DNA of 29,869 bases from a virus, in the IMG/VR virus record IMGVR_UViG_3300017734_000051, positions 1 through 29,869 of that record; one strand, given 5' to 3'. Each line of letters opens with the position of its first letter. Position 1 is the stretch's first letter. The translations under genes and the position numbers were made by a program. Below the pieces are notes generated by a model. That model did no database searches. It was not told the origin of the DNA and saw nothing but the letters and a program-made list of their open reading frames with translations. Positions 14,001 to 29,144 of the stretch are shown here, in pieces.

Positions 14001-17000
14001 AACTAGTTGATCTTGGTATTTCAAATAATTTCTATAATTATGATAATGGTAAATTCTCTACTCTACATGGAACTTACACTGGGACAGAAAATGATATTAA
14101 GAGAAGTTTTGAACTAAGGCATCAGGGTGATTTAATTTTTGAAAGAACGTTTGATGCATCTTCATTGGGAACAACCGTATCTACAGATGAAAATGTTTTA
14201 ATCCTACCAAATCATTTCTTTGTTACTGGTGAACTTATCAATTATACAGTTCCAAATGATGATGATGTTAGAGTTGGTATTGCTACAACTACTATTGCTG
14301 GAATTGGAAGTACTGATAAACTACCAACTAGTTTATATGTCGTAAAAATTAACGATAGTAAGATTAAATTTGCCGTCACCGCAGAGGATGCTCTCAAGTT
14401 CAATCCAGAAACACTCACTCTGAATAATGTTGGTGTTGGAACTTTACACAAAATTACTGCAACTAATAAAGATGCTAAGGGTATCTTTACAATTGATAAT
14501 ATGATGCAATCACCAGTTGTTGGATTAGCAATCACAACATCTGTTTCTGAAGATATTGATTTATCCTTCACATTGATCAATACCGCAGGAATTACTTCAT
14601 TCTTTGCCTATGACGTTATTCAAATTGATGATGAAATAATGTTGATTGAAACTGTCGGTGTTGGAACTCAGGATAAAATTAGAGTCAGAAGACCTTGGTT
14701 AGGAACTGAACTTGGCATTCACACTGCTGGTGCATTAGTAACTAAACTGAAGGGTGATTATAAGATTCTTGGTTCCACAATTAACTTCACATCTGCACCA
14801 TATGGAAAAGTTCCTGTAACAGTAGATGTAAACCAATTTGGAGTTCCATTCGTTGATCCTTCTGATAGAGACTTTACTGGTATTACAACTAACTCATACT
14901 TCCATGGAAGAACCTTTATGAGATCTGGCATTATTGATGAGACTGCAGAGACATATACCAACAATTACATTTTTGATGATATTTCTACCAAGTTTACTGG
15001 TATTAGAACTTCATTCGATATGACTTCTAACGGTCAAGATGTGGTTGGTCTTTCCACCGATAATGCTATTGTTCTTGTTAAGGATATCTTCCAACAACCA
15101 ACAAGACCTGGTGTATCTTCAATTTCAGGAAACTATGAGTTCGTAGAAACTGGTGGAAAAACTAAGATTCTATTTGATGGATCTATTTCTTCTGACGATT
15201 TCACTGCAGCAGATGGTCAAGATATTAACGTCCCCAATTTACCTGTTGGTGGTGTGATTGTAAGTATTGGATCTACTACTGGTCTTGGTTATCAACCTTT
15301 AGTTGCTGCAGGTGCTACTGCAACAATCTCTGGACTTGGATCTATTACTGCTGTTAGTATTGCCAACAGTGGATCTGGATATAGACCTGGTATTCAAACT
15401 CACATCAATGTAATTGCACAGACCTCATCTGATATTTCAATTATTGGTTATGCAACTGCTCTAAATGGTCATATCACTGGAGTTGCAATTACTAATGCAG
15501 GTACTGCATATACAAGCACAAATCCACCACTAATTAGATTCGATTCACCATTAAGTTATACTAATATTCCTTTATTATATTCTAGTGATTCTCCAACCGA
15601 AGGTATTGGAAGAACTGCATCTATTGATATGTTTGTTAGTAGAGATACTAGTATTGGTGAATTTAAGTTCAACAATAATGGATATGCCTATGGTCAAGGT
15701 GAAATATTAACTGTTGCAATTGGAGGAACTACTGGTATTCCTACCGATACATCTAAGACATTTGATGAATTCCAAATCACTGTCAATAGAACTCATAGTG
15801 ATGAATTTAATTCTTGGTCACTTGGACAACTTCAACAATTGGATAGTCTAGATGATCAATTTGATGGATTTAGAAGAGTATTCCCAATTTCTTTCCAAGG
15901 TGATAGATTATCAATCAGAGCAAGACCTGGTAGTCAAATTGATGTATCCGCAACACTAATGATCTTTATTAATGATGTTCTACAAGTTCCTAATCAAGCA
16001 TATACCTTCAAGGGTGGTAGTTTGCTTATATTTGCCGAACCAATTCCTGAGGAATATACTTCCAGAATTATTTTCTATAGAGGAACCAGAGATGTTGACG
16101 TTGAAGAGGTTGATATCGTAGAACCTATTGAGGTTGGAGATAAAGTTAAAATTATGTCTGATGTTGCGTTCCAAACTGAGAATAAGAGAACTGTAGAAGA
16201 CATTCTAGCCTCTGATATTATACTTACAAATCCATATAGTGGTATTGGAAGATTAAATGATGAAACAATTGAAAGACCATTGATGGCATGTAAGCAGACA
16301 GAAGATATCTTTATTAATGGTGAATATGTAGGAAAAAATAGAAGATTGTATGAACCATACATTTTCCCAACAACAAATCTAATTCAACCAGTTGGTGTTG
16401 ATACTACGGTTGCTTGGGTTGAAGCAGTGACTACATTCTTTGATAATACTAAAGAAAATCTAGCAGAAAAGAAACTTGGTCAAATTCAAATTATTTCTCA
16501 AGATGAAACAAGAACTGGAATTGTAAGTGCTACTGTTTCTGGTCTAGGATCTGTTACTAACCTCACAATTGCAAATGCTGGTATTGGTTACACCTTTATA
16601 CCACAAATCTCAGTTGGACCACCGTCATCTGGTGGCACTCAAGCAACTGCAACTTGTACGATTTCTAATGGAGCTATCAATACTGTAACAATTATAAACA
16701 ATGGTATTGGATATACTGGGACTCAAGTACCATCTGTGAACGTTGAACCACCAAGAGTATACATTGAACCCATCAGACAGGTAGAATATGATGGTGATTA
16801 TGGAACTATTGTTTCTGCTGCAAATACAACTATTGGTGCTGGTTTAACTGCAGTAGAACTAAGTCTATACATTCCACCAGATTCTTTCATTAGAGATATT
16901 GGAATTAATCCAGGAGGAATTACAACTGAAGGTATTACTGGTCTAGTAACAAGTTACTATTTTACTGCTTCTAGAACTAATATTGGTTCTGGCATCACTG

Positions 17001-17413
17001 CATTATATAATGATGGAAATACACTTAGTATTTCTACTGATAAGTTCAATAATATCTTCCAAGTTTATGATATTGATAGAATTACAGAATCTGTTCCAGG
17101 AATTGGTACTACTGCTGTTGTTAAGGTTACTACTTTAACAGCAGGTCCTCTTGGACTTTCACAAGATCTTGCTACATTTGATAATGATCTGGAAACTTGG
17201 GATTCAACTGAGTTAACTTTTGATATTGTTGATCAAGAATTTGCTTACTTTGGAAACTTCTCTTGGGGAAGAATTAATTGGCACCCAACCAGAAGTAGAA
17301 AACAACCTTTAGAGTTTACTTCTTACCATAAAAATGCTTTTGCTGGCATTTCAACTTCACCATTCGTTCGTAGAACGTTCCATCTTAGAAGTAAACTATA
17401 TACCCAATATTGA
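5042..17413 (+). CDS. 7: Giant gp7-like baseplate wedge protein with YHYH domain, 4123 aa
   Basis: This is probably the wedge initiator gp7, greatly enlarged (T4 gp7 is about 1030 aa). Support: it lies directly after gp6 and before gp8, the N-terminus (MDIRRIRLSQVLENQIPDFI, then FPLFKDFLRQYQE) is the cyanophage gp7 type, and the C-terminus carries FGNFSWGRINWHPTRSRKQP. A YHYH domain lies around residues 1260-1390: YSHCYAPRKLRQTIY, HSPILGWAYDGNPIYGPYGF (from H1299) and a C-terminal FNGRFCVTPDYPNGVYCYF. The rest is beta modules: NHGF..GE..Y..YYV units (at least five), nGGsGY units (eight here), IDDEI units, and three related ~75-residue domains at about 2635-2968. No membrane segments or catalytic motifs are evident. 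It is uninterrupted over 12.4 kb. The gp7 name rests on position and the N- and YHYH-domain resemblance rather than on alignment. Confidence 0.8.
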   Translation: MDIRRIRLSQVLENQIPDFINDEFPLFKDFLRQYQESNEIPGASYDLLSNIDKYVNLDNILLTPRSTTLRVTGTSDRLNYEDDVINVDSTSGFPYSFGLLSLGNVGEDDYEIVTYTSKTETEFKGVIRGFSGITEIGDELTFSSSLVGEHFDGTTVINLSALFLDEFFKKLKSQIAPGFEERILNYDVNERLFYKHVGDFYRSKGTKNSFEILFRALYNKSVDVIIPSDYIFEPSSSSNRKTRDLVLYSDDQTTDFTDLILHRTLKQPEIDAISDPDEITAYGTITNVERIERNGIRYYIVSLDGDYDKDITVDGTVFGQFVTTATTKVIEDFVGVNDVWPEFLHVDSTLSFQDSGSIDVYNVVNNEFIVEELSYSGKTVNELFEISDVEFDIPRGTLLSSRRYAYVDISDEETYYFRVTQVLSGIKPDQSSYFEVNDPVKFNTLGLKEETTKYNNWTSNATATYNISNLELLSSTNRTYRCNVDGNFDLTTFDKFFLIDNNNKSYNVFVSARESVDEYILTSESLIDLTPPKSFTIERKLNKANFTFFSEANNYVSDVQNIYRPDSFSDEMYIAASSLPNYSNSPLSTNDKRIAFTVNIANDLTSNKEIKIGQDGTPTVAEINHSFYTGDSIIYSEEDENNRLNTFDGDGNLIQLPNGRYYVTVVNTKTIKLSTSLNRVYTKDYLSVTGNVTDAVFYYSDFFDIEKVLNISEPFVLKSKRLVKKIIKPIDQSNPTETIPGKIGIFKNGVELLNYKSKNNIYYGGVESVEILSGGEDYDIINPPTLEFFDGENADGVNTGGIGATGNFVIEGSIRELKVLGGGYNYVNNPTIKVTGGNGSLCDVSPVMETYTHGVTIDSSSGFNVGISTDTIITLEDHLFSPGERVIYNCELNDQEIGGLKNKSIYYIGINDNTSFKLHNSEVDAKNNINSIDLTEFGEGFHKFDAVNKKKRLSALNVNYSSDDFTYRNVSYDPSIVSSPIDFYTNTINLPNHGFNNGELITYNSTTTPIAGLSSGTDYYISKVDSNNFKLSSIGIGTLPKDYYFNQRTFAELTTNGVGRQYFRYPNIEINVTSSSSDVESIQPQILPIVRGKITEVFLEGHGVGYGCTNIFNYERQPTITAEPGKLASVRPFIIDGEIKSVIVQNSGQKYVSTPSVQIFTDGNGFGAELIPIIADDGRLEDVIVKNGGADYNDSTEIEVVSAGVGAKFKAKIIRWNVNEVERAINSNQIYDDDGFLHQDSTISIREANEYGLIQYSHCYAPRKLRQTIYNKKVINGRTTFNPDLVLDTLNRETESTLHSPILGWAYDGNPIYGPYGFTNSDGSGGVKRMQSGYKKRSIASRPSVTIYPLGFFCNDYEWFSDGDLDTFNGRFCVTPDYPNGVYCYFTTIGNNDSSFKNFKLPEYPYVIGERFKSKPIEFNFDSSINQSSFFSDESDLTNENYKTSGLLRNISPQNSSTEFGSYKYLFNPTSVIDIDSKVKSVSFGKVDNILVFSGGKDFKVGDRVIFSESSGNSKRPLAKVASIGGTNVSSVSIATSTITNVEIISNPQTGNVVAICSGPHDQYTGPGRIDDLSSGNEIGTELVAVNRDLELSGIGTGIVIDVPSVTGIVTYVNVFGLDSTQNVIKIIPNDIYKIKYGNFEEQVKILNIEFENSRLRVQREVNGTIGTSYPVGTALSEYTRKFLIDNYLESGSRFNTQYYFDPRESIGLGIGSTLDIFNPGAGSTSRFVAGDRIYIPNNTLQVNDKIYYDYTSGPVEVESFGDNFDLVKDRPYYAYPFPNGFVGVSSRPVGVGSTGPVGLGSVTELLTFTSHGLGDNHSFFTRYDDVKRVDITTYEATFTTSQKHNLIFDDEITTECRPNIEQTLQVFYNEENNKFAIGKFDFVHDDINPKFNTITINNHRLQDGQTLILESITPPGGLLDDGVYKVSVVSKNTIKLLEPNNGGIANITNQSTGRLLVINPPIKLVRDKTLVFDVSDFSLSYVRNNIRYSAFDLKFFTDKELTHEFLSSEKTGDFSISKTDRLGVDLTATVKLNYDTHFPEKLYYILQPLKNAQVPVSYSLSSLDTDNSNIIEFVNSSISGNYNVRKPTDTTFSYRLFDEPDSDSYVSGLSTISYSTISTTASGPINEVSFISQGSNLIKLPLIEKVESESGVDSIIFPRTNSIGAAKNIKINDIGFDFPSDTTLRPRAYTPTIYKIDPLTSLGQIDVLKKGTRYTILPDLVLIDGYTNKIVTDVDLRYVNEDGFRVDIIKNTKNLYDVEPRLLPINNSNGYKIIRMSYDSGTKDVTVILDVVGFSTVTDWPFPVGSQFMVEGVVTKFPSTDEGYNSVDYDYKKLFTVKTADPNIGGQVPSFTYSMDGFVKTTSGPGIFNDLFTSGRIIPESLFPTFNVNRIANKYFENEIITNEVSEDLVVSWDIKNELLKVFTSFPERYQIGDVIRGKTSASSGTLTEVVGITSLTYEFDSSNSDRYKPYDRRGYLNEETQRLHDSDYYQYFSYSLKSEVGISSWKEPVESLAHPGGFKKFSELQLISADDSQLGINSTGIPADQNNSGFLGISEFTSNYDLNCVHDIDLVTENNILNKVSDEIRFNSLILVDYFESIGNRVLIVDDVSDQFNSNPRATAFSTVDTFSLRRFRSKKYVMFTSNKKFPGERQMVIVNVLHNNIYGFISQYGRVETNNVHGYFDIGVFEDNGLLLFYPIEYRFSDFNISGYQYAISDAISGVSTHYIGGNSDSIGFAGIQTALLPQGTSTSTKIVGIDSSYTSAKVLVTLESSDLQYYQYDEFNIVHDGTDIHTVEFSTLATDNFSSQDVSLGIGTYQFEYNGNDIEVKLTPNSGLSTYYDVSSTVVAISNTSRTAIGSSLFNTTLTTVGLGTTTSISPFAGVNTSIQLLEFGKSYKGFNAYVSIEDMTNNIVQMSELVFTHNETDSYITEFGRVSNRGIFEDVGLGTFTSYVDGSTGKARLEFVPYPADPGFTREIEVRLFTHQLQLVDLGISNNFYNYDNGKFSTLHGTYTGTENDIKRSFELRHQGDLIFERTFDASSLGTTVSTDENVLILPNHFFVTGELINYTVPNDDDVRVGIATTTIAGIGSTDKLPTSLYVVKINDSKIKFAVTAEDALKFNPETLTLNNVGVGTLHKITATNKDAKGIFTIDNMMQSPVVGLAITTSVSEDIDLSFTLINTAGITSFFAYDVIQIDDEIMLIETVGVGTQDKIRVRRPWLGTELGIHTAGALVTKLKGDYKILGSTINFTSAPYGKVPVTVDVNQFGVPFVDPSDRDFTGITTNSYFHGRTFMRSGIIDETAETYTNNYIFDDISTKFTGIRTSFDMTSNGQDVVGLSTDNAIVLVKDIFQQPTRPGVSSISGNYEFVETGGKTKILFDGSISSDDFTAADGQDINVPNLPVGGVIVSIGSTTGLGYQPLVAAGATATISGLGSITAVSIANSGSGYRPGIQTHINVIAQTSSDISIIGYATALNGHITGVAITNAGTAYTSTNPPLIRFDSPLSYTNIPLLYSSDSPTEGIGRTASIDMFVSRDTSIGEFKFNNNGYAYGQGEILTVAIGGTTGIPTDTSKTFDEFQITVNRTHSDEFNSWSLGQLQQLDSLDDQFDGFRRVFPISFQGDRLSIRARPGSQIDVSATLMIFINDVLQVPNQAYTFKGGSLLIFAEPIPEEYTSRIIFYRGTRDVDVEEVDIVEPIEVGDKVKIMSDVAFQTENKRTVEDILASDIILTNPYSGIGRLNDETIERPLMACKQTEDIFINGEYVGKNRRLYEPYIFPTTNLIQPVGVDTTVAWVEAVTTFFDNTKENLAEKKLGQIQIISQDETRTGIVSATVSGLGSVTNLTIANAGIGYTFIPQISVGPPSSGGTQATATCTISNGAINTVTIINNGIGYTGTQVPSVNVEPPRVYIEPIRQVEYDGDYGTIVSAANTTIGAGLTAVELSLYIPPDSFIRDIGINPGGITTEGITGLVTSYYFTASRTNIGSGITALYNDGNTLSISTDKFNNIFQVYDIDRITESVPGIGTTAVVKVTTLTAGPLGLSQDLATFDNDLETWDSTELTFDIVDQEFAYFGNFSWGRINWHPTRSRKQPLEFTSYHKNAFAGISTSPFVRRTFHLRSKLYTQY
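6905..14370 (+). repeat. Recurring 'NHGF..GE..Y / YYV..V...FKL' modules in gp7
   Basis: A degenerate protein module recurs at about 6905-7075 (INHSFYTGDSIIY ... RYYVTVVNTKTIKLS), 7650-7800 (EDHLFSPGERVIY ... IYYIGINDNTSFKLH), 8009-8136 (LPNHGFNNGELITY ... DYYISKVDSNNFKLS), 10727-10855 (INNHRLQDGQTLIL ... GVYKVSVVSKNTIKLL) and 14199-14370 (LPNHFFVTGELINY ... LYVVKINDSKIKF). Spacing between the two halves varies. They look like small beta units strung along the protein. The span given covers interspersed unrelated sequence. Confidence 0.65.
7339..16718 (+). repeat. Paired 'v.i.nGGsGY....P.v.i' modules in gp7
   Basis: Short beta modules occur in pairs: 7339-7380 and 7488-7520 (LSGGEDY, LGGGYNY), 8460-8497 and 8581-8620 (NSGQKY, NGGADY), 15343-15387 and 15480-15518 (NSGSGY, NAGTAY), 16553-16594 and 16678-16718 (NAGIGY, NNGIGY). 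Each is followed by a Pro-x-Val/Ile segment, and the two members of a pair are separated by about 95-150 bases. The span covers interspersed sequence. Related copies exist in gp8 and in the 2599-aa protein. Confidence 0.7.
12945..13950 (+). repeat. Three related ~75-residue domains inside gp7
   Basis: Segments at about 12945-13170, 13317-13550 and 13719-13950 share a pattern: a strand with K-(Y/V)-x-V, then ...Q...(V/I)-V-H-(N/D), then an aromatic with (Y/F)-G-R-V or E-F, then a Gly-x-Gly-T-(Y/F) or equivalent turn, and a final hydrophobic strand ending near Pro (LLLFYPIEY, VKLTPN, LEFVPYP). The second and third are the most alike (FNIVHDGTDIHTVEF against LVFTHNETDSYITEF). They appear to be duplicated beta domains; the family is not one I can name. 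Confidence 0.5.
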
Positions 17414-17423
17414 TATTGATAAA

Positions 17424-17975
17424 ATGAGACTACCATTGGTTATATTACATGATTTTGCAAAAATCGGTGAAAGTGATAGAAAACTTATGATTGATGATGT
17501 TCTTTCAAGTAGAAGGCAGCATTTAATTAGAGATTCAAGTGCATATAAATCAAATAACCCAATAGACATAGATCAAACTGGGTTATTTTCTATTTTGTAT
17601 GCAAAGTTTGCTGAAAAATCGGAAGAGTTGTTTGGTAACTTAAATTATGAATCAGATAATAGTGACAAATGTTGGGCATTTTGCACAAATAATGAATATT
17701 GGGCATTTAATCCACATATTCATGATTGCACTATCAATTCTGTATATTACTTGAATGTCCCAAAACATAATGGTCATGAATGTGGACCAATTATGTTTAC
17801 GGATGATCAAGATTCTGGGAAATGGATATCTTATCAACCAAAAAACGATGATTTAATTATTTTTCCTGGGAATCTTTATCATGATCCAAATTTTGTTCCG
17901 ACTGATGAATGGAGAATTTCTGTAAACATGGAAATTCGTTGCAAGAACAATATTAAATGGTCTGCTTATAAATAA
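17424..17975 (+). CDS. 2OG-Fe(II) oxygenase family protein, 183 aa
   Basis: The protein resembles the small 2-oxoglutarate/Fe(II)-dependent dioxygenases found in many cyanophage virion clusters (2OG-FeII_5 type). The double-stranded beta-helix signature is visible: HIHDCTINSVYYLNVP (98-113) supplies the first metal ligands, IIFPGNLYHDPNF (145-157) gives the distal histidine H153, and WRISVNME (163-170) gives R164, expected to bind the 2OG carboxylate. The frame is open from 17334, inside gp7, but ATG at 17424 is chosen: it falls 10 bases after the gp7 stop and removes an unconserved 30-residue extension. The substrate is unknown; relatives hydroxylate amino-acid side chains, often proline. 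Its position between gp7 and a tail fibre suggests a virion-protein substrate, but that is inference. Confidence 0.75.
   Translation: MRLPLVILHDFAKIGESDRKLMIDDVLSSRRQHLIRDSSAYKSNNPIDIDQTGLFSILYAKFAEKSEELFGNLNYESDNSDKCWAFCTNNEYWAFNPHIHDCTINSVYYLNVPKHNGHECGPIMFTDDQDSGKWISYQPKNDDLIIFPGNLYHDPNFVPTDEWRISVNMEIRCKNNIKWSAYK
17967..17974 (+). promoter_or_regulatory. T4-type late promoter box TATAAATA
   Basis: An exact match to the T4 late promoter consensus TATAAATA overlaps the last sense codons and stop of the oxygenase (tat-aaa-taa) and lies 23 bases before the fibre ATG at 17998. T4-like phages use this box with gp55/gp33-type sigma factors, so late transcription of the fibre gene is expected. 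Confidence 0.75.
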
Positions 17976-17997
17976 GTCATAAAGTTAGTCTATCATA

Positions 17998-19719
17998 ATG
18001 GCACTACAAGGTATATCAACTGGAGTTGCACCAAATGACGGTCTTGGAGATACTCTCCTTGTAGGAGCCGTCAAAATAAACAAGAATTTTCAAGAAATTT
18101 ATAATGCTATTGGAAATGGAACTACCATCTTTTCAGGTGATCCTAATATAGACGTTGGATTTATCACTGCTACTGGAGCATATTTCAGTGGCAATGTCAC
18201 GATTGGTTCAACACTTACATATGAAGATGTAACTAATATCGATTCTGTTGGATTGATTACTGCAAGAGATGGTATTGCAGTTCTTGGTGCAGGAATCACT
18301 GTTGCGGGTGTTTCTACATTCTACAATGCAACTACAATTGGTGCAGCAAGCACTTTTACTAATACAGGTCTCTCTGTGGGTTCTGCAGTCACTATAACTG
18401 CAACTGGAGTCAATGTTACTGGTATAGTCACAGCAACAACATTCTCTGGCAATCTACCAACAACGGATCTAACAGGAACTATAACTAATGCTCAACTTGC
18501 TGGTTCTATTGAAAATGGTAAGTTAACAAACTCTAGTATTGGTATTGGAGGACTCACTTTTAGTCTTGGGGACAGTGATACAACACCAGCATTTGATTTA
18601 AGTGATGCTACTAATTATCCCACTAGTAGTCTCAGTGGAACCATATCTAATGCTCAGTTAGCAGGTTCTATTGCGAATGCTAAGTTATCTAATGATAGTG
18701 TCTCATTCGGTGGAGTAAGTTTAGACCTTGGTGGTTCAGATGCAACACCAGCATTTAACTTAAGTGATGCTACTGATTATCCAACTAGTAGTCTTAGTGG
18801 AACCATAACTAATGCTCAACTTGCTGGTTCTATTGCAGATGGTAAGTTAGCAAGTACATTCCTTAAGAATGTTGTAGAAGATACGACTCCACAACTTGGT
18901 GGTAACTTGAGTCTTAATTCCAACACCATCAATGGAACTGGTAACATAAACTTCACTGGAACTCTAACTGCTACATCGATTGTTAAATCTGGTGGCACAT
19001 CTTCCCAATTCTTAAAAGCAAATGGTTCTGTTGATAGCAGCACTTACTTGACATCATTAGGAACTGCTATTCTGGATGGTGATTTTACCAGTAATGGTTT
19101 CATGAAACGAACTGGTGCTGGATCATATACAGTTGACACTAGTACTTATCTGACAACAACAGGAAACGGTTCTGGTCTGACTAATTTAACTGGATCTAAT
19201 ATCTCATCAGGAACAGTTCCTGTAGCACGTATTGGTACTGGTACTAAGAGTGCTTCAACATACTATCGTGGTAATGGAACATTTGCAACCATCTCCTCTA
19301 GTTCCTTGAGTGATACTGTTGAGGGAACATGGACACCCGTATTTGAAGGTGCTACTACGGCTGGAACCTATACTTATGGTTCTCGGACAGGGACCTACAT
19401 TAGGGTCGGAAACTTGGTGACTGCGACATGTAATATGACCAATATTGCTACGAGTAGTGCAGGATCAGGTATAATTCAAATAGGACAACTTCCTGTTAAT
19501 TCTTCATCATCAAAGGGAGTTGCAGTAGGTTCAATTACTATAACTCAATTTAACACCACCACAAATTGTATTAATGTGACTTGTGAACTTGCTGAAGGAG
19601 TTGGAAAAATGACCGTCGTGCAATCAATAGATGCTAGTAATTCTGTAAGTTTGGCGGTTACGGACAAAATAAACGATGGTGCGGATATTCGTCTCACAAT
19701 TACATATTTTGCCGACTAA
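17998..19719 (+). CDS. Tail fibre-like protein with tandem repeats, 573 aa
   Basis: The N-terminus GVAPNDGLGDTLLVGAVKINKNF (residues 8-30) is the 'NDG.GD.L..A..KIN.NF.EIY' motif that opens many cyanophage fibre proteins, probably the attachment region. A Gly/Thr/Ser-rich shaft follows with units such as GLITARDGIAVLG and GIVTATTFSGNL. Next come two and a third copies of a 54-residue tandem repeat (from residue 160). The C-terminal domain from about residue 443 (GTWTPVFEG ... YIRVGNLVTATCNM) is found at the tips of many phage fibres and spikes and probably forms the trimeric receptor-binding tip. There is no membrane segment or enzyme motif. It has its own TATAAATA box, suggesting separately tuned late expression. 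It sits between gp7 and gp8, an insertion relative to T4 gene order. Confidence 0.8.
   Translation: MALQGISTGVAPNDGLGDTLLVGAVKINKNFQEIYNAIGNGTTIFSGDPNIDVGFITATGAYFSGNVTIGSTLTYEDVTNIDSVGLITARDGIAVLGAGITVAGVSTFYNATTIGAASTFTNTGLSVGSAVTITATGVNVTGIVTATTFSGNLPTTDLTGTITNAQLAGSIENGKLTNSSIGIGGLTFSLGDSDTTPAFDLSDATNYPTSSLSGTISNAQLAGSIANAKLSNDSVSFGGVSLDLGGSDATPAFNLSDATDYPTSSLSGTITNAQLAGSIADGKLASTFLKNVVEDTTPQLGGNLSLNSNTINGTGNINFTGTLTATSIVKSGGTSSQFLKANGSVDSSTYLTSLGTAILDGDFTSNGFMKRTGAGSYTVDTSTYLTTTGNGSGLTNLTGSNISSGTVPVARIGTGTKSASTYYRGNGTFATISSSSLSDTVEGTWTPVFEGATTAGTYTYGSRTGTYIRVGNLVTATCNMTNIATSSAGSGIIQIGQLPVNSSSSKGVAVGSITITQFNTTTNCINVTCELAEGVGKMTVVQSIDASNSVSLAVTDKINDGADIRLTITYFAD
18475..18849 (+). repeat. 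Tandem 162-bp (54-aa) repeats in the fibre shaft
   Basis: Unit 1 is 18475-18636, unit 2 is 18637-18798 and a partial unit 3 is 18799-18849. Each begins GTI(T/S)NAQLAGSI and contains G(L/V)(T/S)(F/L)(S/D)LG.SD(T/A)TPAF followed by LSDAT.YPTSSLS. The DNA is also clearly similar between units, with differences mostly synonymous or conservative, so the duplication is fairly recent or kept uniform. Confidence 0.85.
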
Positions 19720-19720
19720 T

Positions 19721-19752
19721 CATAAATAACCTTACAATTAATCTAATAAATA
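19721..19752 (+). promoter_or_regulatory. Two late-promoter-like boxes before gp8
   Basis: CATAAATA (19721-19728) and AATAAATA (19745-19752) both fit the NATAAATA form of the T4-type late box. They fill the 50-base gap between the fibre stop and the gp8 start at 19770. The second is 17 bases from the ATG, so either or both could drive gp8. Confidence 0.65.
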
Positions 19753-19769
19753 ACTAAAAATAATCGATC

Positions 19770-21338
19770 ATGTCTGCAATCGTAACAGATCAACTTAGAA
19801 TATTGAATGCAAAGAATTTCATTGGTGAAATTACTTCTGTTAACAATAACTATTATACATTCGTTGGATTAACAAATCCAAATGAATATCTAAGTAGTTG
19901 GGATGAAGATCCTCCTGCCCCAAAAGATAATTTTGATCAAGAAAATCATAATTGGGATACTATTATTGGCTTGAAGAAAGTTGATACTAATAATGTAAGA
20001 TATGCTTTGAAAAAGAATACTTGGACATCAGGTATTACTTATGATATGTATAGGCACGATATCAATCGTGACAATGTATCACAACCATCACTGGCAACTA
20101 GCTTATACTCTGCTAATTTCTATGTTGTAAACAGAGATTTTAAAGTTTATGCCTGTTTACAGAATGGAACAGATCCAGAAAATCCAAATGGTAGACCGTC
20201 TTTGGACGAACCAACCTTTATTGACTTAGAACCAAGAAGTGCTGGAACTAGTGGTGATGGATATATTTGGAAATATCTCTTTACTATCAATCCAAATGAT
20301 ATTGTTAAATTTGATACTTTAAATTATATCACAGTTGCGACTGATTGGGATACTGCAGACGAATATCAATCAGTAAGATTAAATTCAGCAAATAGTGGTC
20401 AGTTAAAAATTGCTACGGTAAAAACTAGAGGTGTTGATGTAGGATCACCAAACCAAGTATATACTTGCGATATTGTTGGTGATGGTACTGGTGGAGAAGC
20501 AACAATTGTAGTGGATAACCAATCAAAAGTTGATTCTGTTACCATTTCAAATGGTGGATCTGGATATACATATGCACGTATTGATTTAACAACTGGAAAT
20601 TTCCCAACTAGTTCTACAACTACCCCAACTTTTGATGTCATTATTCCACCAAAAGGTGGTCATGGTGCTGATATCTATAGAGAACTTGGTTGTACAAAAG
20701 TCTTAATTTATTCTCAAATCAAAAATGATGCGACGAATCCAGACTTTATTGTTGGAAACAGAGTTTCAAGAATTGGCATCATTGCAAATCCAGAAGAATT
20801 TAATTCTACAGAATCACTTCAAAAAAATCAGGCAAGTGCTTTATATGCATTAAAACTAACTGGTGTTAATGCGTCAACTGATTATATTAATGCCACATTT
20901 GATGCAAATGCAACTATTACACAAACTGTTTCTGCTGGATCAACTGCAATTGGTAGAGTTGTTTCTTACAACAAAAATACTGGAGTTCTAAAGTATTGGC
21001 AAGACAGAATTTCTCATGGATTTAATTATGATCTAGATAATACCGATGGAACTGGAACTTATGGAAATACTTTAATTCATTTTACTGCAACTCCAGGAAC
21101 TGGTGGAACATTAAATATTACTGGTTCTAATCAAGATCTTAAGATTGACACTACATTTAGTGATGATAAATTCGTCATAAATAACCTAAGTTACTATCTT
21201 GGACAGTCATTCACAGATGGTGTTTCTACACCAGAAGTGAAAAAATACTCGGGAGATTTGGTTTATGTTGATAATAGACCATCTATTACAAGGTCTGAAA
21301 ACCAAAGAGAAGATATCAAAATCGTATTGCAGTTCTAA
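19770..21338 (+). CDS. 8: Baseplate wedge subunit gp8
   Basis: This 522-aa protein has the gp8 N-terminus (MSAIVTDQLRILNAKNFIGE, then NNNYYTFVG) and conserved blocks such as WTSGITYDMYRHDIN, NFYVVNRDFKVYACL and GDGYIWKYLFTINP, as in T4 gp8 (334 aa). The C-terminal half is longer than in T4 and includes an NGGSGY module near residues 253-267 and a conserved end (YSGDLVYVDNRPSITRSENQ). gp8 dimers bind gp7 and gp6 in each wedge. It is preceded by two late-type boxes and is followed six bases later by the 2599-aa protein, so those two genes are probably expressed together. Confidence 0.92.
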   Translation: MSAIVTDQLRILNAKNFIGEITSVNNNYYTFVGLTNPNEYLSSWDEDPPAPKDNFDQENHNWDTIIGLKKVDTNNVRYALKKNTWTSGITYDMYRHDINRDNVSQPSLATSLYSANFYVVNRDFKVYACLQNGTDPENPNGRPSLDEPTFIDLEPRSAGTSGDGYIWKYLFTINPNDIVKFDTLNYITVATDWDTADEYQSVRLNSANSGQLKIATVKTRGVDVGSPNQVYTCDIVGDGTGGEATIVVDNQSKVDSVTISNGGSGYTYARIDLTTGNFPTSSTTTPTFDVIIPPKGGHGADIYRELGCTKVLIYSQIKNDATNPDFIVGNRVSRIGIIANPEEFNSTESLQKNQASALYALKLTGVNASTDYINATFDANATITQTVSAGSTAIGRVVSYNKNTGVLKYWQDRISHGFNYDLDNTDGTGTYGNTLIHFTATPGTGGTLNITGSNQDLKIDTTFSDDKFVINNLSYYLGQSFTDGVSTPEVKKYSGDLVYVDNRPSITRSENQREDIKIVLQF

Positions 21339-21344
21339 AGAATT

Positions 21345-24300
21345 ATGCCACAACTAACCAATCTAAACACCTTTCCGTACTTCGACGATTTTGATGAGTC
21401 AAATAACTTTCATAAGGTGCTGTTCAAACCTGGACAACCTGTCCAGGCTAGAGAACTTACAACTCTACAGAGCATTATTCAAAATCAAGTAGAGCAGTTT
21501 GGCAATCATGTATTTAAAGAAGGGTCTGTAGTAATTCCTGGATCTTTAGTTGTATCTGCAGATCAGATTTCTTTAGAACTTGCGAGAACTTTTAATGGAT
21601 TAGATATAACTCAATATCTAAGTTCATTAGTTGGAAAGATTATTGTTGGTGCAGATAGTGGTGTAAAGGCAAAAGTTGAGGGATATCAGAATACACATAT
21701 AATTGTTAGTTTGATTGAGGGTGGTACAGATAATGAACAGCAAGAATTTGAAGTAGACGAAGATATTTTTGTACAGGAATCTATTCCTTTAACTGATGCT
21801 GAAATCACTAGTTTTTCTGCAGGTTCTTCAGTAGCAACAGTAAAGCAATTTGATGAAGGGTGTATTGCAAAAATTACGGAAGGTGTTTTCTTTTTAAGAG
21901 GATACTTTGTTAAAGTTTCAGAGCAGTTTTTAATTGTATCTACAACAGAACCAGAACCATCATTTACATTAGGTTTTGAAGTTGAAGAAGATTTTATTTC
22001 TTCTTATGATGATGAATCACTTTATGATAATTCACAAGGATTTGTTAACTTTGCTGCTCCTGGTGCTGATAGATTAAAAATCTCAGCAAAAATGTCTGCG
22101 ATTATTGATGGTGATGAAATTCCACAGAATTTTGTCGAACTGGCTAAGATTGTAAATGGATCAATTGCTTCTTCAAAAGTAGAAAATCCTGAATATAATG
22201 TTCTTGGGGATGAACTGGCAAGAAGAACATTTGATGAAAGTGGCAATTATTATGTAAAACCATTTACTCTAGAAGTAAAAAATAGTCTACAAGACTTTAA
22301 AGGAAGTAATGGAATATATGCAGAAAATGAAACTACACAGTCTGGTGAAACACCTAGAGATGATCTAGCAGTATATCAACTTTCTGCTGGTAAGGCATAT
22401 GTTCAGGGATATGAAGTAAATATTCCTTCTGGAGCCTCATTAGATATATTAAAGCCAAGAACTACAAAAGAATTTAAGTCTCAGGCAGTAGAATATGCAA
22501 CTGGTTCTACATTAAGACTTAATAATGTATATGGTGCTCCAAAGATTGGATTATCAACAACATATACTATTTCTCTTAGAAGTGAGAGAGTTGGAGCAGC
22601 AGCAACAATTGCGGCAGGTAAAGAAATTGGTCTAGCTAGAGTATATGATTATGCTCTAGAAACTGGATCTTATGATGCTGCAAATCCTCTCACCAATTCG
22701 TGGGATTTGACACTGTTTGATGTTGTTTCATTCACAGATCTAAATCTAAATCAAAATCTAACATCACAACAAATACCAACATTCATTAAGGGTAAGTCAA
22801 GTGGTGCTGTTGGTTATTTAAGGTATGAGGCAACAAATACTGGTATTATTACTGCGTATAATGTAACGGGTAACTTCACTAAAGGTGAAGAACTAATCTT
22901 TAATGGTGAAGATAGTGATAGAATTGTTTTATCTTCAACAAACTATGGTATTTCCAATATCAAGTCAATTCATGGTGAAATTGGAATTACTACATTCTCA
23001 GGTGATGTAAGACAGACTTCTGTATTAGAACTAGGTGCGTGTACATTTAGTGGTGGTGGAGTCACTGTAGAACAAGCAGATAGAGAGTTTACAAAGGATT
23101 TTGTTGTAGGTGATTTAATTTCATTCAAAAAGTCTGGTGATACTCTATCTACACTTAATAGAGTTACAGTAGTAACTACTGATAATCTAACTGTTGAAGC
23201 AATCCAAGCAGTATCAGGTGTCCACAATGGAGCACTATTTGGTAATGGTGAAGTTAATGTTACTAAGGTAACTACACAATTGGGTGACAATGGATCAGAT
23301 ACACTCTATACTCCACTACCCAAAGAAAACGTAGCAAATGTAGTTTTAACAAACTCTTCAATTACCATCAGAAAAACTTTTAATGAACCAATTGTTGCTG
23401 ATGCTACTGGTGGAAGATTAACGATTCTTCCTGCTGATTTGGAAACTGGTGAGACATTTTTACCCTTTGATGAAGAAAGATATATTGTTGTAAATTCTGA
23501 TGGTCAAACAGAAGCACTAACTGAAGATAAAATTACAATTACAAGTGGAAGTAGAGAGTTAATTATTAAAGGTCTAAGTGTCCTTGGTTCTGCAACTGTA
23601 GTTGCTACGTTAAAGAAAAATAGCATAAAAGCACAGAATAAGATTAGAAATAGAGTCAAAACTATTCTTGTCGATAAATCATCCTTAGAAGGATCTGGTG
23701 TTGGTGCGACAACCTTAAATGATGGTTTAACTTATGGTAACTACCCATATGGAACTAGAGTTCAGGACAATGAAATTTGCTTATTAGAACCAGATGTCAC
23801 TAAAATTCATGCGATTTATGAATCATCTACAACTGGAACACCACAATTACCAAGACTTACTTTAAGTGATGTCAGTAGTTTTAATGGAAGTGTTGAAGAT
23901 GCTCTAAACGGTGAAGAAATTATTGGTAGTGAGAGTAATTGTGTTGCTGTTTTAGTTAATAAAGTAACTTCATCAACTGCTGAAGTAGTTTATGTTAATG
24001 GTAAGAAATTTAATATTGGTGAAGAAATTACATTCAAAGAATCTTCAATTACTGCAACTATCAGTCTAGTTGTTGATGGTGATAATGATATTACATCAAA
24101 ATATACTTTCAACAACTCAACAAAATCAACAATTTATGATTATTCTAGAATTGCTAGAAAGGAAAATACAAAACCACCTACAAAAAAAGTAACTGTTGTA
24201 TATGAATATGCAAGTATTGATAGTTCTGATACTGGAACTTTAGTAACTGCAAATTCATATGAAAATTTTGATTATTCAAATATTTCAACAATTAATGGTT

Positions 24301-27300
24301 TAAGACAAAGTGATATTATTGATATCAGACCGAAAGTTAAAACATATTCAGTATCTGAAGGTGTTAGATCTCCTTTTGAATTCTTGGGAAGATCTTTCGA
24401 TTCATCTCAAAATAACAATCTAAATGTATTGGCATCAGATGAGTCAGTTGAACTTGATTATTCAATATACTTAGGTAGAATTGATAGAATTTATCTAGAC
24501 AAATCAAAATCATTCCAAGTTGTTCAAGGAACACCAGAAGAAAGTCCAGAGGCACCAGTTCCTCTTGACAATTCAATGGAGGTTGCCGTAGTAACATATC
24601 CTCCATATTTGACTGATGTGAGTGATGCAAAAATATCTTTGCTAGATCATAAAAGATATAGAATGCAAGATATTGCATTACTGGAAAAGAGAATTGCAAA
24701 TCTTGAATATTATACACAACTATCTCTTTTAGAAACAAATACTGCTAACCTAGAAATTAAAGACTCTGACGGAGCAACAAGATTTAAGTCTGGTTTTTAT
24801 GTTGATAATTTTACATCGACAACAAACCAGATTAAACTTGGTGCTAAGAATGCTATTGATCCAGAGAATAATGAACTAAGACCTTCTTCTTACACCACTG
24901 AACTTGATTTACTGTTAGGTTCAACTGCTTCCACAGGAATCAATGGAGTTGTTGATCCCACATCTGATATACGTTTTGCTCAAGACCTTATTGGTGAAAA
25001 TATTAGAAGGTCTACTATAGATCCAAATGGAAGTGCTGGAACAGATGGTATGGGTGTTATAACCCTAGACTATGAAGAACTTGTAGAAGAAGAGCAACTA
25101 ACTGCAACAAGAGTTGTAAATGCCGCACCATACTTCGTTGATTTTTACACTGGTCAAGTAACACTCAATCCATCTTCAGATATTTGGATTGAGCAAGCAA
25201 GAATTGAAACTCAAACTATTGAAGGATTACTTGGTGGAATTACCCAGACTAATATTACAGCAACTCCTGCAGATCTAGATCCTCAAGCAGGTTGGTCTCC
25301 AACATTGTGGGGTGGATGGAATAAAAATTGGACTGGTAGAACAACTACCAGAAGAACAGTAACTGGAACTGATCGACAAACTTTACCTGGTGGAAGAGGA
25401 ACAAGAGCAGGTAGTGTTACTGCACGTTCTTCTGCAACTGTACAAACCGTCACTAGAACAGGAACTGCAACTCAACAAGGTTTCTCTCAAAGAATACAAA
25501 CAGTACCAGGAAATAATATTAGTCTTGGTGACAAACTTGTATCATCTGATGTTTCTTCCTTTATGAGAGCAAGAAATATCGAAATTATTACAAAAGGTAT
25601 GAAACCTCATACCAGATTATATGCATTCTTTGGTTCAACACGTGTAACTAATTACTGTGTTCCAAAACTTCTTGAAATTGAAATGATTTCTGGAACATTT
25701 AATGTTGGTGAAACAGTTGTTTCTGGTGGAGCAAACTCACTAAGACCAGGTGTAACTCAAGATCTACCATACATTTCTTTCAGAGTTGCCGATTCTCACC
25801 ATAGAACTGGACCATATAATGATCCTCAAGATGTTTATACAGTAAATCCTTACACACGTGAGGAGATGCCTGATCTATATTCCACAACATCAACCATTTT
25901 GAATGTCGATTTGGCATCAATGGCTCTAGCACCATCTGGTGAATATTTTGGATATATTTCCGAGGGCATGATCCTCCAAGGTAGAAATAGTGGTGCAAGA
26001 GCAAGAATTACAACTCAAAGACTTACTAGTGATAATGTTGGAATGATGCAAGCATCTTTCTATATTCCTAATCCAAATGCTGCAGGAGCACCTAAGTTTA
26101 GAGTCGGAAATGTTACATTAAAAGTTGGTGATGCAGATACATTAGATCCTATTGAAGGTGTTTCATATACTGGTGGTGAAAAAGACTTCTTCTCACAAGG
26201 AACAATTAATAATGTTCAAGGTCAAGTAATTTCCACAAGAAATGCTGAAGTTGTTAATGCATATACTCAACAATCTAGACCTATTAGAAGGACTCGTGAA
26301 ACTCTTGTCGATATGAGCATCGATGTTGATGTTACTCTTCCACAACCAGTACCAATTCCACGTCCACAACCACAACCAAGACCTCAGCCACGTCCTAGAC
26401 CACAACCAAGACCAACACCTAATCCATCACCAAGACCTAGACCTAGACCTGTACCAAACCCAACACCCAATCCACGTCCAGCTCCTAGACCTAGACCAAA
26501 TCCACGTCCAAGACCTCAGCCACGTCCTAGACCTAGACCTAGACCTCAACCACGTCCAAGACCAAGACCTAGACCAAGGCCACGTCCTAGACCAAGACCT
26601 AGACCTAGACCTAGACCAAGGCCACGTCCTAGACGCAGACCAAGACCTAGACCAAGGCGTCGTAGAAGAAGAAGAGATCCTATTGCACAGTCTTTCATGA
26701 TTGGTAGTCAGGCAGATCCTACAGGAATCTTTGCAACATCTGTTGATCTGTTCTTTAGAACAACTTCAACAACGGGACAAACGTGTTTTGTTGAATTGAG
26801 ACCTATGGTGAATGGTATTCCTTCAGCAGAAACTATCTACCCAATGTCTCAAGTTATTCTAACGGGTGAGCAAGTTCAAGTTTCTGAAGATGCGAGTGTG
26901 CCGACGACGATAACATTCCCAGCACCAGTTTATCTGGAAGGAAATAAAGAGCATTGTGTTGTTGTTGGATCTAATGCTACAGACTTCACATTATGGGTTT
27001 CTAGACTGGGAGAAGTTGATGTTGCATCATTAGCACTACCTGAGTCACAGCAAATTCCAATTACCAAGCAGTCATCTCTTGGTTCTATGTTCAAGTCTCA
27101 GAATGGTTCCACTTGGACTCCAAGTCAGTATGAAGACCTCAAGTTTAGATTAAATAGAGCAAACTTTATCTCTGAAGGAAATGTTAGTTTCTTCAATCCA
27201 GATCTATCTTCTGGAAATAGACAAGTAGCAACACTAAAGAAAGATTCACTAGAAATGAATTCTAGAAGAATCATCGTTGGACTTGGAACAACTGCTAGAA

Positions 27301-29144
27301 GTTGGGGTAGTGATATTGTTGCGGGAAACACTGTTATCCAAGACAACTCAAATGCATCTGGCAACTTTGTGATGGGTCTTGGCATTGCTACTGGCACGAT
27401 GGCAGTAACCAATGCAGGTCTCGGACTCACACCTTCTAGTGGATTCTTCCAATATAACAATGTCCCACTAACCAAACTAACTGGTAGAGGTGAAAATGCA
27501 ACTGCAAATATCCATATAAACAATGGTGTTGCAGCTGGTGCCACAATCTCAGATGGTGGTAATGGATTCAAAGTTGGTGATGTTCTAACTGCTACTATTG
27601 GTGGTGGAGTTGGTAGAAATCTACAACTTTCAATAACTGGTACTTATGGTATTAGTGAACTTATTCTCGATCAGGTTCAGGGTAACTTCATCGTTGGTGG
27701 TGGAAATACTTTGAGATACATCAATTCTAGTGGTGTAACTACCGAATTCACTGATCAAGGATCTACAGATATTCTAACCTCACCAAGAATAGTAACCGAT
27801 GGATTACATATTAAGGTTAACCATCTAAACCATGGTATGCACTCAGATACAAATAATGTTGTTGTTGATGGTGTTTCTTCTGATATTCCTGTCGTAAGAC
27901 TAGAAGGTGATTATCTACTCAGTTCAACAGATGATCTTATTGTTTCAAATGCTTCTGACTTTGAGAACTTTGAAGGTGTTGGTGTTGGAACCACAAACCC
28001 AGGTTACGTTAAAATTGAAGATGAAATTATTTCCTATACTTCAGTAATTGGTAATAGTCTTGGTGGTATTATAAGACGTGTTGACTCCACATTCGGTGGT
28101 GCATATGAGGATCAATCTATTGTTGAAAAATATGAGGTTGCTGGTATTTCTCTCAGGAGAATCAACAAGTCTCACTCACTACAAGATGCAACTATCACCG
28201 AGGATATTGGTCTAGATCATTATACTTTGAAGGTTGATACTTCATCGGATGGTATTGATAGATCATCTTCAACATCATTCCCAGCACTATACTCAAATGA
28301 GTCCAAGTCTACTGGTGGTGAGAGTGCAACTGCTACACAGAATATTCATTATGAAATCATGAAACCTATTGTTCAGTCAATAGTTCTACAAAAAACTAAT
28401 TTGACTTCAAGAGTAAGAACAGTTACTTCAACTAGCATTGGTGGTAATGAGGTTTCATTCTTAGATTCTGGTTATCAATCAATTAATCTAGAAGATGATA
28501 ATTATTTCGATACACCACGAATGATTGCATCTAAAGCAAATGCTGATGCTTTACTAACAACACTTCCAGGAAATAGATCATTTGAACTTGAACTCAATAT
28601 GACTTCATTTGATCCCAGACTATCACCAGTGGTTGACTTGGATAGAATTGGTTCTATCTTTGTTTCCAATAGAATTAATAGTGTAGTTACTGATTTTGTA
28701 ACTGATCCACGTGTAGCAACTGTTCAGGATGATCCTAGTGCATTCCTATATGCAACTAAACCAATTGGTTTAGAAATTCCAGCAACTAATATTAAGTTGA
28801 TGTGTTCTGCATATATTAATAACTTCTCCGATATTAGAGCATTTTATGCATTGACTAATGATCCATCAGAATCATTGATTTATTATCCATTCCCAGGTTA
28901 TGATAACTTACTAGAAAGTGGTCAAGTAATTGATCCTGCTAAGAACAGTGGTAGATCTGATAAGTTGGTTGTACCAACAGATAATAAAGGATTCCAATCC
29001 ACATCACTAACATTTAAGGATTACTCCTTTACTATTGAAAATCTACCGTCATTCAAGTTCTTCAGTATAAAACTAGTTGGAACATCAACCAACCAATGCT
29101 ACCCACCAAGAGTTCGTGACCTAAGAGCAATCGCATTCGCATAA
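21345..29144 (+). CDS. Giant baseplate/fibre structural protein, DUF4815-type, 2599 aa
   Basis: The N-terminus (FPYFDDFDESNNFHKVLFKPGQPVQARELTTLQ pattern, residues 9-41) marks the DUF4815-type domain of cyanophage fibre and baseplate proteins. In order, one sees a long beta-rich region; a coiled-coil-like DIALLEKRIANLEYYTQ (about 1106-1122); a Thr/Arg-rich stretch near 1330-1385; MRARNIEIITKGMKPHTRLY (from 1407); the Pro/Arg tract (1666-1777); then DPIAQSFMIG (from 1778) with a conserved block ending near FTLWVSRLGEVD; an NGG-type module pair (about 2019-2076); an IEDEIISY module (about 2221-2228); and a conserved C-terminus. By position it replaces gp9/gp10 of T4 and probably anchors or forms fibres, but the exact role is unproven. 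It follows gp8 by six bases. Confidence 0.85.
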   Translation: MPQLTNLNTFPYFDDFDESNNFHKVLFKPGQPVQARELTTLQSIIQNQVEQFGNHVFKEGSVVIPGSLVVSADQISLELARTFNGLDITQYLSSLVGKIIVGADSGVKAKVEGYQNTHIIVSLIEGGTDNEQQEFEVDEDIFVQESIPLTDAEITSFSAGSSVATVKQFDEGCIAKITEGVFFLRGYFVKVSEQFLIVSTTEPEPSFTLGFEVEEDFISSYDDESLYDNSQGFVNFAAPGADRLKISAKMSAIIDGDEIPQNFVELAKIVNGSIASSKVENPEYNVLGDELARRTFDESGNYYVKPFTLEVKNSLQDFKGSNGIYAENETTQSGETPRDDLAVYQLSAGKAYVQGYEVNIPSGASLDILKPRTTKEFKSQAVEYATGSTLRLNNVYGAPKIGLSTTYTISLRSERVGAAATIAAGKEIGLARVYDYALETGSYDAANPLTNSWDLTLFDVVSFTDLNLNQNLTSQQIPTFIKGKSSGAVGYLRYEATNTGIITAYNVTGNFTKGEELIFNGEDSDRIVLSSTNYGISNIKSIHGEIGITTFSGDVRQTSVLELGACTFSGGGVTVEQADREFTKDFVVGDLISFKKSGDTLSTLNRVTVVTTDNLTVEAIQAVSGVHNGALFGNGEVNVTKVTTQLGDNGSDTLYTPLPKENVANVVLTNSSITIRKTFNEPIVADATGGRLTILPADLETGETFLPFDEERYIVVNSDGQTEALTEDKITITSGSRELIIKGLSVLGSATVVATLKKNSIKAQNKIRNRVKTILVDKSSLEGSGVGATTLNDGLTYGNYPYGTRVQDNEICLLEPDVTKIHAIYESSTTGTPQLPRLTLSDVSSFNGSVEDALNGEEIIGSESNCVAVLVNKVTSSTAEVVYVNGKKFNIGEEITFKESSITATISLVVDGDNDITSKYTFNNSTKSTIYDYSRIARKENTKPPTKKVTVVYEYASIDSSDTGTLVTANSYENFDYSNISTINGLRQSDIIDIRPKVKTYSVSEGVRSPFEFLGRSFDSSQNNNLNVLASDESVELDYSIYLGRIDRIYLDKSKSFQVVQGTPEESPEAPVPLDNSMEVAVVTYPPYLTDVSDAKISLLDHKRYRMQDIALLEKRIANLEYYTQLSLLETNTANLEIKDSDGATRFKSGFYVDNFTSTTNQIKLGAKNAIDPENNELRPSSYTTELDLLLGSTASTGINGVVDPTSDIRFAQDLIGENIRRSTIDPNGSAGTDGMGVITLDYEELVEEEQLTATRVVNAAPYFVDFYTGQVTLNPSSDIWIEQARIETQTIEGLLGGITQTNITATPADLDPQAGWSPTLWGGWNKNWTGRTTTRRTVTGTDRQTLPGGRGTRAGSVTARSSATVQTVTRTGTATQQGFSQRIQTVPGNNISLGDKLVSSDVSSFMRARNIEIITKGMKPHTRLYAFFGSTRVTNYCVPKLLEIEMISGTFNVGETVVSGGANSLRPGVTQDLPYISFRVADSHHRTGPYNDPQDVYTVNPYTREEMPDLYSTTSTILNVDLASMALAPSGEYFGYISEGMILQGRNSGARARITTQRLTSDNVGMMQASFYIPNPNAAGAPKFRVGNVTLKVGDADTLDPIEGVSYTGGEKDFFSQGTINNVQGQVISTRNAEVVNAYTQQSRPIRRTRETLVDMSIDVDVTLPQPVPIPRPQPQPRPQPRPRPQPRPTPNPSPRPRPRPVPNPTPNPRPAPRPRPNPRPRPQPRPRPRPRPQPRPRPRPRPRPRPRPRPRPRPRPRPRPRRRPRPRPRRRRRRRDPIAQSFMIGSQADPTGIFATSVDLFFRTTSTTGQTCFVELRPMVNGIPSAETIYPMSQVILTGEQVQVSEDASVPTTITFPAPVYLEGNKEHCVVVGSNATDFTLWVSRLGEVDVASLALPESQQIPITKQSSLGSMFKSQNGSTWTPSQYEDLKFRLNRANFISEGNVSFFNPDLSSGNRQVATLKKDSLEMNSRRIIVGLGTTARSWGSDIVAGNTVIQDNSNASGNFVMGLGIATGTMAVTNAGLGLTPSSGFFQYNNVPLTKLTGRGENATANIHINNGVAAGATISDGGNGFKVGDVLTATIGGGVGRNLQLSITGTYGISELILDQVQGNFIVGGGNTLRYINSSGVTTEFTDQGSTDILTSPRIVTDGLHIKVNHLNHGMHSDTNNVVVDGVSSDIPVVRLEGDYLLSSTDDLIVSNASDFENFEGVGVGTTNPGYVKIEDEIISYTSVIGNSLGGIIRRVDSTFGGAYEDQSIVEKYEVAGISLRRINKSHSLQDATITEDIGLDHYTLKVDTSSDGIDRSSSTSFPALYSNESKSTGGESATATQNIHYEIMKPIVQSIVLQKTNLTSRVRTVTSTSIGGNEVSFLDSGYQSINLEDDNYFDTPRMIASKANADALLTTLPGNRSFELELNMTSFDPRLSPVVDLDRIGSIFVSNRINSVVTDFVTDPRVATVQDDPSAFLYATKPIGLEIPATNIKLMCSAYINNFSDIRAFYALTNDPSESLIYYPFPGYDNLLESGQVIDPAKNSGRSDKLVVPTDNKGFQSTSLTFKDYSFTIENLPSFKFFSIKLVGTSTNQCYPPRVRDLRAIAFA
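26340..26675 (+). repeat. Pro-X / Pro-Arg tract (residues 1666-1777)
   Basis: Proline occupies every second residue for 48 consecutive dipeptides (26340-26627); the partner is Gln, Val, Ile, Arg, Thr, Asn, Ser or Ala at first, then increasingly Arg, and the last 13 dipeptides are all Pro-Arg. It ends PRRRPRPRPRRRRRRR just before DPIAQSF. Synonymous codons are mixed (CCA/CCT; AGA/CGT/AGG), and a 25-base DNA repeat occurs at 26568-26592 and 26610-26634, a 42-base period. Alternating proline favours an extended rod, and the arginines give a very high positive charge. Confidence 0.95.
27399..27572 (+). repeat. NGG-type module pair in the 2599-aa protein
   Basis: MAVTNAGLGLTPSSGFF and ATISDGGNGFKVGD form a pair like those in gp7, with the same beta-turn-Gly layout and about 100 bases between them. 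A single copy (DSVTISNGGSGY) also lies in gp8 at 20528-20570. Confidence 0.55.

What the first reader, a model, noticed from the sequence alone, without database searches (positions are those of the whole stretch)
17424..26675. Possible virion hydroxyproline pathway: 2OG oxygenase (and glycosyltransferase) with a proline-rod substrate
A 2OG-Fe(II) oxygenase lies in the virion cluster 9 kb from the Pro-X tract, and a GT-A glycosyltransferase lies at 706-1479. Known: some 2OG oxygenases are prolyl hydroxylases and glycosyltransferases can modify hydroxyproline. Inference: the phage may hydroxylate, and perhaps glycosylate, the proline rod, changing its stiffness or host recognition. The link is by neighbourhood and chemistry only; no substrate is shown.
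Basis: inference. Interest (0 to 1): 0.7.

Follow-up and report, generated by a model that had tools for sequence, protein, structure and literature searches.

The report
Phage oxygenase paired with proline rod
A marine cyanobacterial phage carries, among its tail genes, an oxygenase shaped like prolyl hydroxylases and a tail protein with a long proline-arginine rod; the two tend to occur together in related phages, which makes the rod a plausible but unproven target, while the suggested sugar step has no support.

Summary
A 2OG-Fe(II) oxygenase (17424-17975) sits between gp7-like and tail-connector genes of a T4-like cyanophage. The Pro-X tract (26337-26675; 52 Pro and 42 Arg of 113 residues) lies in a 2599-aa DUF4815 protein whose S-SCSM1 relative is annotated as a virion protein. 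For the link: in all 7 phages where both sites could be read, the oxygenase orthologue and an alternating-Pro tract occur together, and the one close relative readable at both sites that lacks the oxygenase has a coiled-coil-like linker instead of the tract. The oxygenase model (pLDDT 94) resembles prolyl hydroxylases most; the top VIA-align row is the chlorovirus enzyme. Against it: only two independent contrasts; other lineages carry proline tracts without the oxygenase; HxH replaces the HxD iron motif; S-SCSM1 has 24 such oxygenases; further relatives of the enzyme lie on contigs without the tract protein. The glycosyltransferase part fails: its gene is in 17 of 19 tract-less cyanophage genomes. 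Verdict: partly supported; proline hydroxylation of the rod is the leading hypothesis (about 0.35). No substrate is shown, and trypsin-based proteomics would hardly see the tract.

The parts
17424..17975 (+). 2OG-Fe(II) oxygenase (PF13759), candidate protein hydroxylase; invariant H98-x-H100, H153, R164
26337..26675 (+). alternating Pro-X (mostly Pro-Arg) tract, 113 aa, candidate substrate
21345..29144 (+). DUF4815 / VrlC-like virion protein (phrog_358) that carries the tract
17998..19719 (+). baseplate wedge-tail fibre connector-like protein, gene next to the oxygenase
19770..21338 (+). baseplate wedge gp8
5042..17413 (+). gp7-like baseplate wedge protein, gene just upstream of the oxygenase
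706..1479 (+). putative glycosyltransferase (phrog_1574); general cyanophage gene, not linked to the tract

Best explanation
The tract is a strongly basic, extended (polyproline-II type) spacer in a baseplate-cluster virion protein. The oxygenase is made with the virion proteins and acts as a protein hydroxylase; the most likely target is the prolines of this tract, modified before or during tail assembly, which would stiffen or protect the rod. Shown: the genes, their places, purifying selection on the oxygenase, its modelled fold, the co-occurrence at close range. Inferred: joint expression, catalysis, the target, the effect. No sugar step is proposed.
For: Orthologue-level oxygenase in 2 of 21 records searched whole, both tract-bearing (S-SCSM1 and the L010 contig, over 315 bits; next best 49 bits). 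Oxygenase and tract on one sequence in window, S-SCSM1, L010, L155 and L004 (tract cut by the contig end), and by 100% contig overlaps in L006+L143 and L011+L144: 7 of 7. The divergent pair in L155 is rich in P-K where clade A has P-R, so proline is the constant residue. L152 has neither. Tract starts look homologous in both clades (PQP..PRP). VIA-align top rows: chlorovirus prolyl hydroxylase 5c5u Z 14.8, Trichoplax and human PHDs 14.7; Foldseek top row PHD2, E 7.7e-8. dN/dS 0.04-0.19 in 36 of 36 pairs.
Against: HxH replaces the HxD/E iron motif in 17 of 17 aligned rows. Alternating tract without slot oxygenase: L072, L169, L183, L184; 19 further loci with 12 or more P in 40 aa, mostly poly-Pro, without it. 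Only 2 independent contrasts, so no significance possible. With L305, L306 and L308 added, the nesting of the oxygenase-less L152 group is unresolved. L305, L306 and L308 lack the oxygenase and their tract is not readable. Five distant oxygenase relatives (L225-L229) lie on contigs without a gp8 or DUF4815 match. S-SCSM1 has 24 2OG oxygenase ORFs (PMC9602691, section 8). No control shows that other PF13759 paralogues resemble prolyl hydroxylases less: the control model failed.
Confidence: 0.35

Rival explanations
1. The oxygenase is one of the many 2OG oxygenases that cyanophages carry, with a role in host or small-molecule metabolism, and stands in the virion cluster by chance of insertion.
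For: PF13759 matches in 19 of 22 records, many in several copies; 24 2OG ORFs in S-SCSM1, functions untested; Sullivan et al. propose a role through 2OG level (PMC3037559, passages); oxygenase absent from the slot in L305, L306, L308 while the baseplate genes stay.
Against: It is the only one of the PF13759 matches of S-SCSM1 inside the baseplate-tail stretch read (record 5.0-41.1 kb; positions); it stands between gp7 and connector in all oxygenase-bearing loci where both are readable; it co-occurs with the tract.
Confidence: 0.28
2. It is a hydroxylase of another late protein, such as gp7-like, the connector or another part of the DUF4815 protein, and its link with the tract is indirect.
For: Its closest neighbours are the gp7-like and connector genes.
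Against: The connector stays in L152, L305 and L308 without the oxygenase, and its length varies several-fold among oxygenase-bearing loci.
Confidence: 0.25
3. The oxygenase hydroxylates the basic side chains (Arg or Lys) of the tract rather than proline.
For: The tract is basic in both oxygenase-bearing clades.
Against: The basic residue shifts from Arg towards Lys between clades while proline stays; nearest folds are prolyl hydroxylases.
Confidence: 0.08
4. As first proposed, hydroxylation followed by glycosylation of the tract by the gene at 706-1479.
For: Weak glycosyltransferase match.
Against: That gene is in 19 of 21 records, among them 17 of the 19 tract-less ones, and stands 25 kb away.
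Confidence: 0.03

Closest known systems
PBCV-1 chlorovirus prolyl 4-hydroxylase (vCPH, PDB 5c5u/5c5t)
   Same: small virus-encoded 2OG oxygenase; top structural neighbour of the model (Z 14.8); [quoted passage not shown] I recall P-X repeats of the virus among its test peptides (Eriksson 1999, not read)
   Different: eukaryotic algal virus; canonical HxD (recalled); hydroxyproline was sought and not found in virions (PMC7019647); 14% identity here
Mimivirus L230 lysyl hydroxylase-glucosyltransferase
   Same: virus-encoded hydroxylase with viral repeat proteins as substrate, hydroxylysine found in virions (PMC9614988, passages)
   Different: acts on lysine of collagen-like proteins; both activities in one protein; no comparable sugar transferase is linked here
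PF13759 / TIGR02466 proteins, solved as 2rg4 and 3bvc
   Same: same Pfam family (by the match of a phage PF13759 protein to both), same HxH motif, close fold (Z 14.6 and 14.4)
   Different: uncharacterised bacterial proteins; the window protein scores below the TIGR02466 cut-off (32 against 62.5)
Synechococcus phage S-SCSM1 ORF16 and ORF19
   Same: orthologues, 88% identity (oxygenase) and 77.5% (DUF4815), same order
   Different: tract a little longer with an acidic end; already described as one of 24 2OG genes, with no link to the tract in the passages read

Membership tests
2OG-Fe(II) oxygenase, PF13759 | profile match over the curated cut-off | tested here: met
   33.4 bits against 27
2OG-Fe(II) oxygenase, PF13759 | double-stranded beta-helix fold | tested here: met
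   AF2 model pLDDT 94, pTM 0.91; Z over 14 to 2OG oxygenases
2OG-Fe(II) oxygenase superfamily | HxD/E...H iron triad | tested here: not met
   H98-x-H100...H153 in 17 of 17 rows; the same HxH in 2rg4 and 3bvc, so this is a trait of the family rather than of this protein
2OG-Fe(II) oxygenase superfamily | 2OG-binding basic residue after the distal His | tested here: met
   R164 invariant in 17 of 17; its role is inferred from position
Prolyl 4-hydroxylase (PF13640 type) | profile match over the cut-off | tested here: not met
   16.2 bits against 27
Prolyl 4-hydroxylase (PF13640 type) | hydroxylates peptidyl proline | not testable with these tools
   needs an enzyme assay
TIGR02466 | score over the NCBIfam cut-off | tested here: not met
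   32 against 62.5
DUF4815 tail protein | PF16075 match and position after gp8 | tested here: met
   183 bits; gene order
Hydroxyproline glycosylation pathway | glycosyltransferase tied to tract and hydroxylase | tested here: not met
   gene in 17 of 19 tract-less genomes
GT-A glycosyltransferase (706-1479) | curated profile match | tested here: inconclusive
   no Pfam match; phrog_34859 E 4.4e-10

The most novel reading that the evidence does not exclude
A bacteriophage encodes its own prolyl hydroxylase, with a His-x-His...His iron site, dedicated to a proline-arginine (or proline-lysine) rod in its baseplate; enzyme and rod are gained and lost together, making a phage counterpart of the chlorovirus and mimivirus protein-hydroxylation systems.
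Probability: 0.27. Interest if true: 0.78.

Novelty: new variant of a known kind. Interest (0 to 1): 0.5.

Why it matters
Cyanophages carry many 2OG oxygenases whose targets are unknown; [quoted passage not shown] This one comes with a named, testable candidate substrate in a cultivable phage and a natural comparison lineage (L152 type). If confirmed it would be a phage-made hydroxyproline in a virion. The tract also warns about method: nearly all its Arg residues precede Pro, so trypsin cannot cut it and routine virion proteomics would miss any modification.

Tried and rejected
Glycosyltransferase link: rejected on distribution.

General rule 'proline tract needs oxygenase': rejected. In one search, of 301 records 111 had tract and slot judged readable; dropped were 80 without a usable DUF4815 C-terminal match, 18 with too little sequence before it, 44 without gp8, 33 with the slot cut off and 15 duplicates. 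Of the 111: 4 with oxygenase, all with tract; 107 without, of which 24 had 12 or more P in 40 aa, 5 of these alternating. One of the 5, L144, was wrongly called oxygenase-less: its contig starts inside the connector and overlaps L011, which has the oxygenase, at 100% over 632 nt. The true alternating counter-examples are therefore L072, L169, L183 and L184 (the last two near-identical), and all proline-rich ones 23. Absence from the slot does not show absence from the phage; L183's 102-kb and L072's 65-kb records had no PF13759 or PF13640 match.

Concerted loss: one search places the L152 group between two oxygenase-bearing clades (97/96; AU p 0.037; an earlier run gave 0.004 but also forced L244 out). 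One search, with L305, L306, L308, L309, L244 and L303 added, leaves that fork open and needs 3 oxygenase changes, so the loss reading is not robust.

Structural control: a second PF13759 protein (L228) was modelled but failed (pLDDT 33), so I cannot say how special the prolyl-hydroxylase similarity is; PHD2 also fills the PDB list by sheer number. Sequence search of the PDB with the oxygenase gave nothing useful. The HxH scan of paralogues returned only 4 hits from 30 loci, with a pattern that admits only H, D or E. The phage behind the solved DUF4815 homologue 9euf was not identified. Paper searches for phage virion hydroxyproline or prolyl hydroxylase listed no phage report (open-licence library only, listings read).

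Full report
What is there. The window is part of the baseplate gene cluster of a T4-like cyanophage; the closest isolate is Synechococcus phage S-SCSM1. Gene order: putative glycosyltransferase, a PHROG 'ferredoxin', gp25, gp6, a 4123-aa gp7-like protein, the oxygenase, a tail-fibre connector, gp8, a 2599-aa DUF4815 protein and two small genes.

The tract. It occupies 26337-26675: 113 residues, 52 Pro and 42 Arg, no acidic residue, no PP, 49 prolines in strict alternation. By recalled polyproline-II geometry it would be about 35 nm long if fully extended. It lies just before a conserved domain that begins DPIAQSF. Most cyanophages have a variable linker at this place: of 20 isolates read, only S-SCSM1 has the tract; the other 19 have at most 7 P in 40 aa there, L022 and L029 with a single run of six prolines.

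The oxygenase. It passes the PF13759 cut-off. Its model has mean pLDDT 94. VIA-align ranks the chlorovirus prolyl hydroxylase first (Z 14.8), with Trichoplax PHD, human PHD2 and the PF13759 proteins 2rg4 and 3bvc tied within 1 Z. The residues H98, H100, H153 and R164 are invariant in 17 of 17 aligned rows. The second ligand position is His, not Asp or Glu, as in 2rg4 and 3bvc. The gene is under purifying selection: dN/dS 0.04-0.19 in 36 of 36 pairs.

Do they go together? At orthologue level (over 300 bits) the oxygenase is in 2 of 21 records searched whole, both tract-bearing; the best of the rest scores 49 bits. In all, 7 phages show both: window, S-SCSM1, L010, L155 and L004 on one sequence, and L006+L143 and L011+L144 through identical overlaps. 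L222, with oxygenase, overlaps the tract-bearing L154 at 92% over 1162 nt, so near kin rather than one phage. Clade A has P-R tracts, clade B (L155, L218) P-R and P-K. L152 has gp7 and connector matches 44 nt apart with no oxygenase, and a coiled-coil-like linker in place of the tract; L149, L150, L230 and L243 share that linker but their slot is cut off or not held. The connector gene is present in L152, so the oxygenase does not simply follow the connector.

How strong is that? Weak in numbers. There are two independent contrasts; in 200 random pairings the alternating tract goes the same way in 1.9 of 2 on average and never the other way, but two cannot be significant. Whether L152's state is a joint loss depends on sampling. 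Three further oxygenase-less relatives, L305, L306 and L308, end before the tract. Farther away, many lineages carry poly-Pro tracts and at least L072 an alternating P-A/P-Q/P-R tract, with gp7 abutting gp8. So the tract does not need this enzyme; the supported statement is narrower: wherever this enzyme is found next to a readable DUF4815 gene, an alternating, basic proline tract is there too.

The sugar step. The candidate glycosyltransferase is in 19 of 21 records, 17 of 19 tract-less ones among them. It is a general cyanophage gene and no evidence ties it to the tract.

Mechanism. I commit, at 0.35, to proline hydroxylation of the rod before or during assembly. The shift from Arg towards Lys with proline kept argues against Arg or Lys as target. 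The main doubts are the HxH site, the many sister oxygenases, and distant members of the same subfamily on contigs with no DUF4815 or gp8 match.

Known background. Viral protein hydroxylases are known in chloroviruses, where hydroxyproline was sought in virions and not found (PMC7019647, passages), and in mimivirus, where hydroxylysine was found (PMC9614988, passages). In cyanophages 2OG oxygenases have been discussed as regulators of 2OG or as repair enzymes (PMC3037559; PMC2984593; passages). My searches listed no report of a phage prolyl hydroxylase with a virion target (open-licence papers only).

Noticed in passing
26337-26675 and the same place in L061, L159, L165, L183, L213 and others: The linker before the DPLAQSF domain of DUF4815 proteins is a hot spot: Pro-Arg, Pro-Lys, runs of up to 24 prolines, coiled-coil-like or short linkers in related phages.
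   Followed up: partly
L225:6484-12569 and L227: A row of about ten similar-sized ORFs next to tail-like genes; two in L225 score as 2OG oxygenases with the window-derived model, suggesting a tandem oxygenase array.
   Followed up: no
26337-26675: Of 42 Arg in the tract only the last few are not followed by Pro, so trypsin leaves the first 99 residues as one piece.
   Followed up: partly
1981-2655: PHROG labels this family 'ferredoxin' (E 1.6e-114) and some records PurM, yet no Pfam family reaches its cut-off: probably a mislabel.
   Followed up: no
21345-29144: A DUF4815 homologue is solved (9euf and 14 further entries, 'ORF65'), matching both ends of this protein; it could place the rod in a baseplate.
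   Followed up: partly
26337-26675: The tract's composition matches the Pro-Arg dipeptide-repeat peptide PR20 in PDB 7top (E 0.001); low complexity, but Pro-Arg repeats are known (recalled) to bind ribosomes.
   Followed up: no
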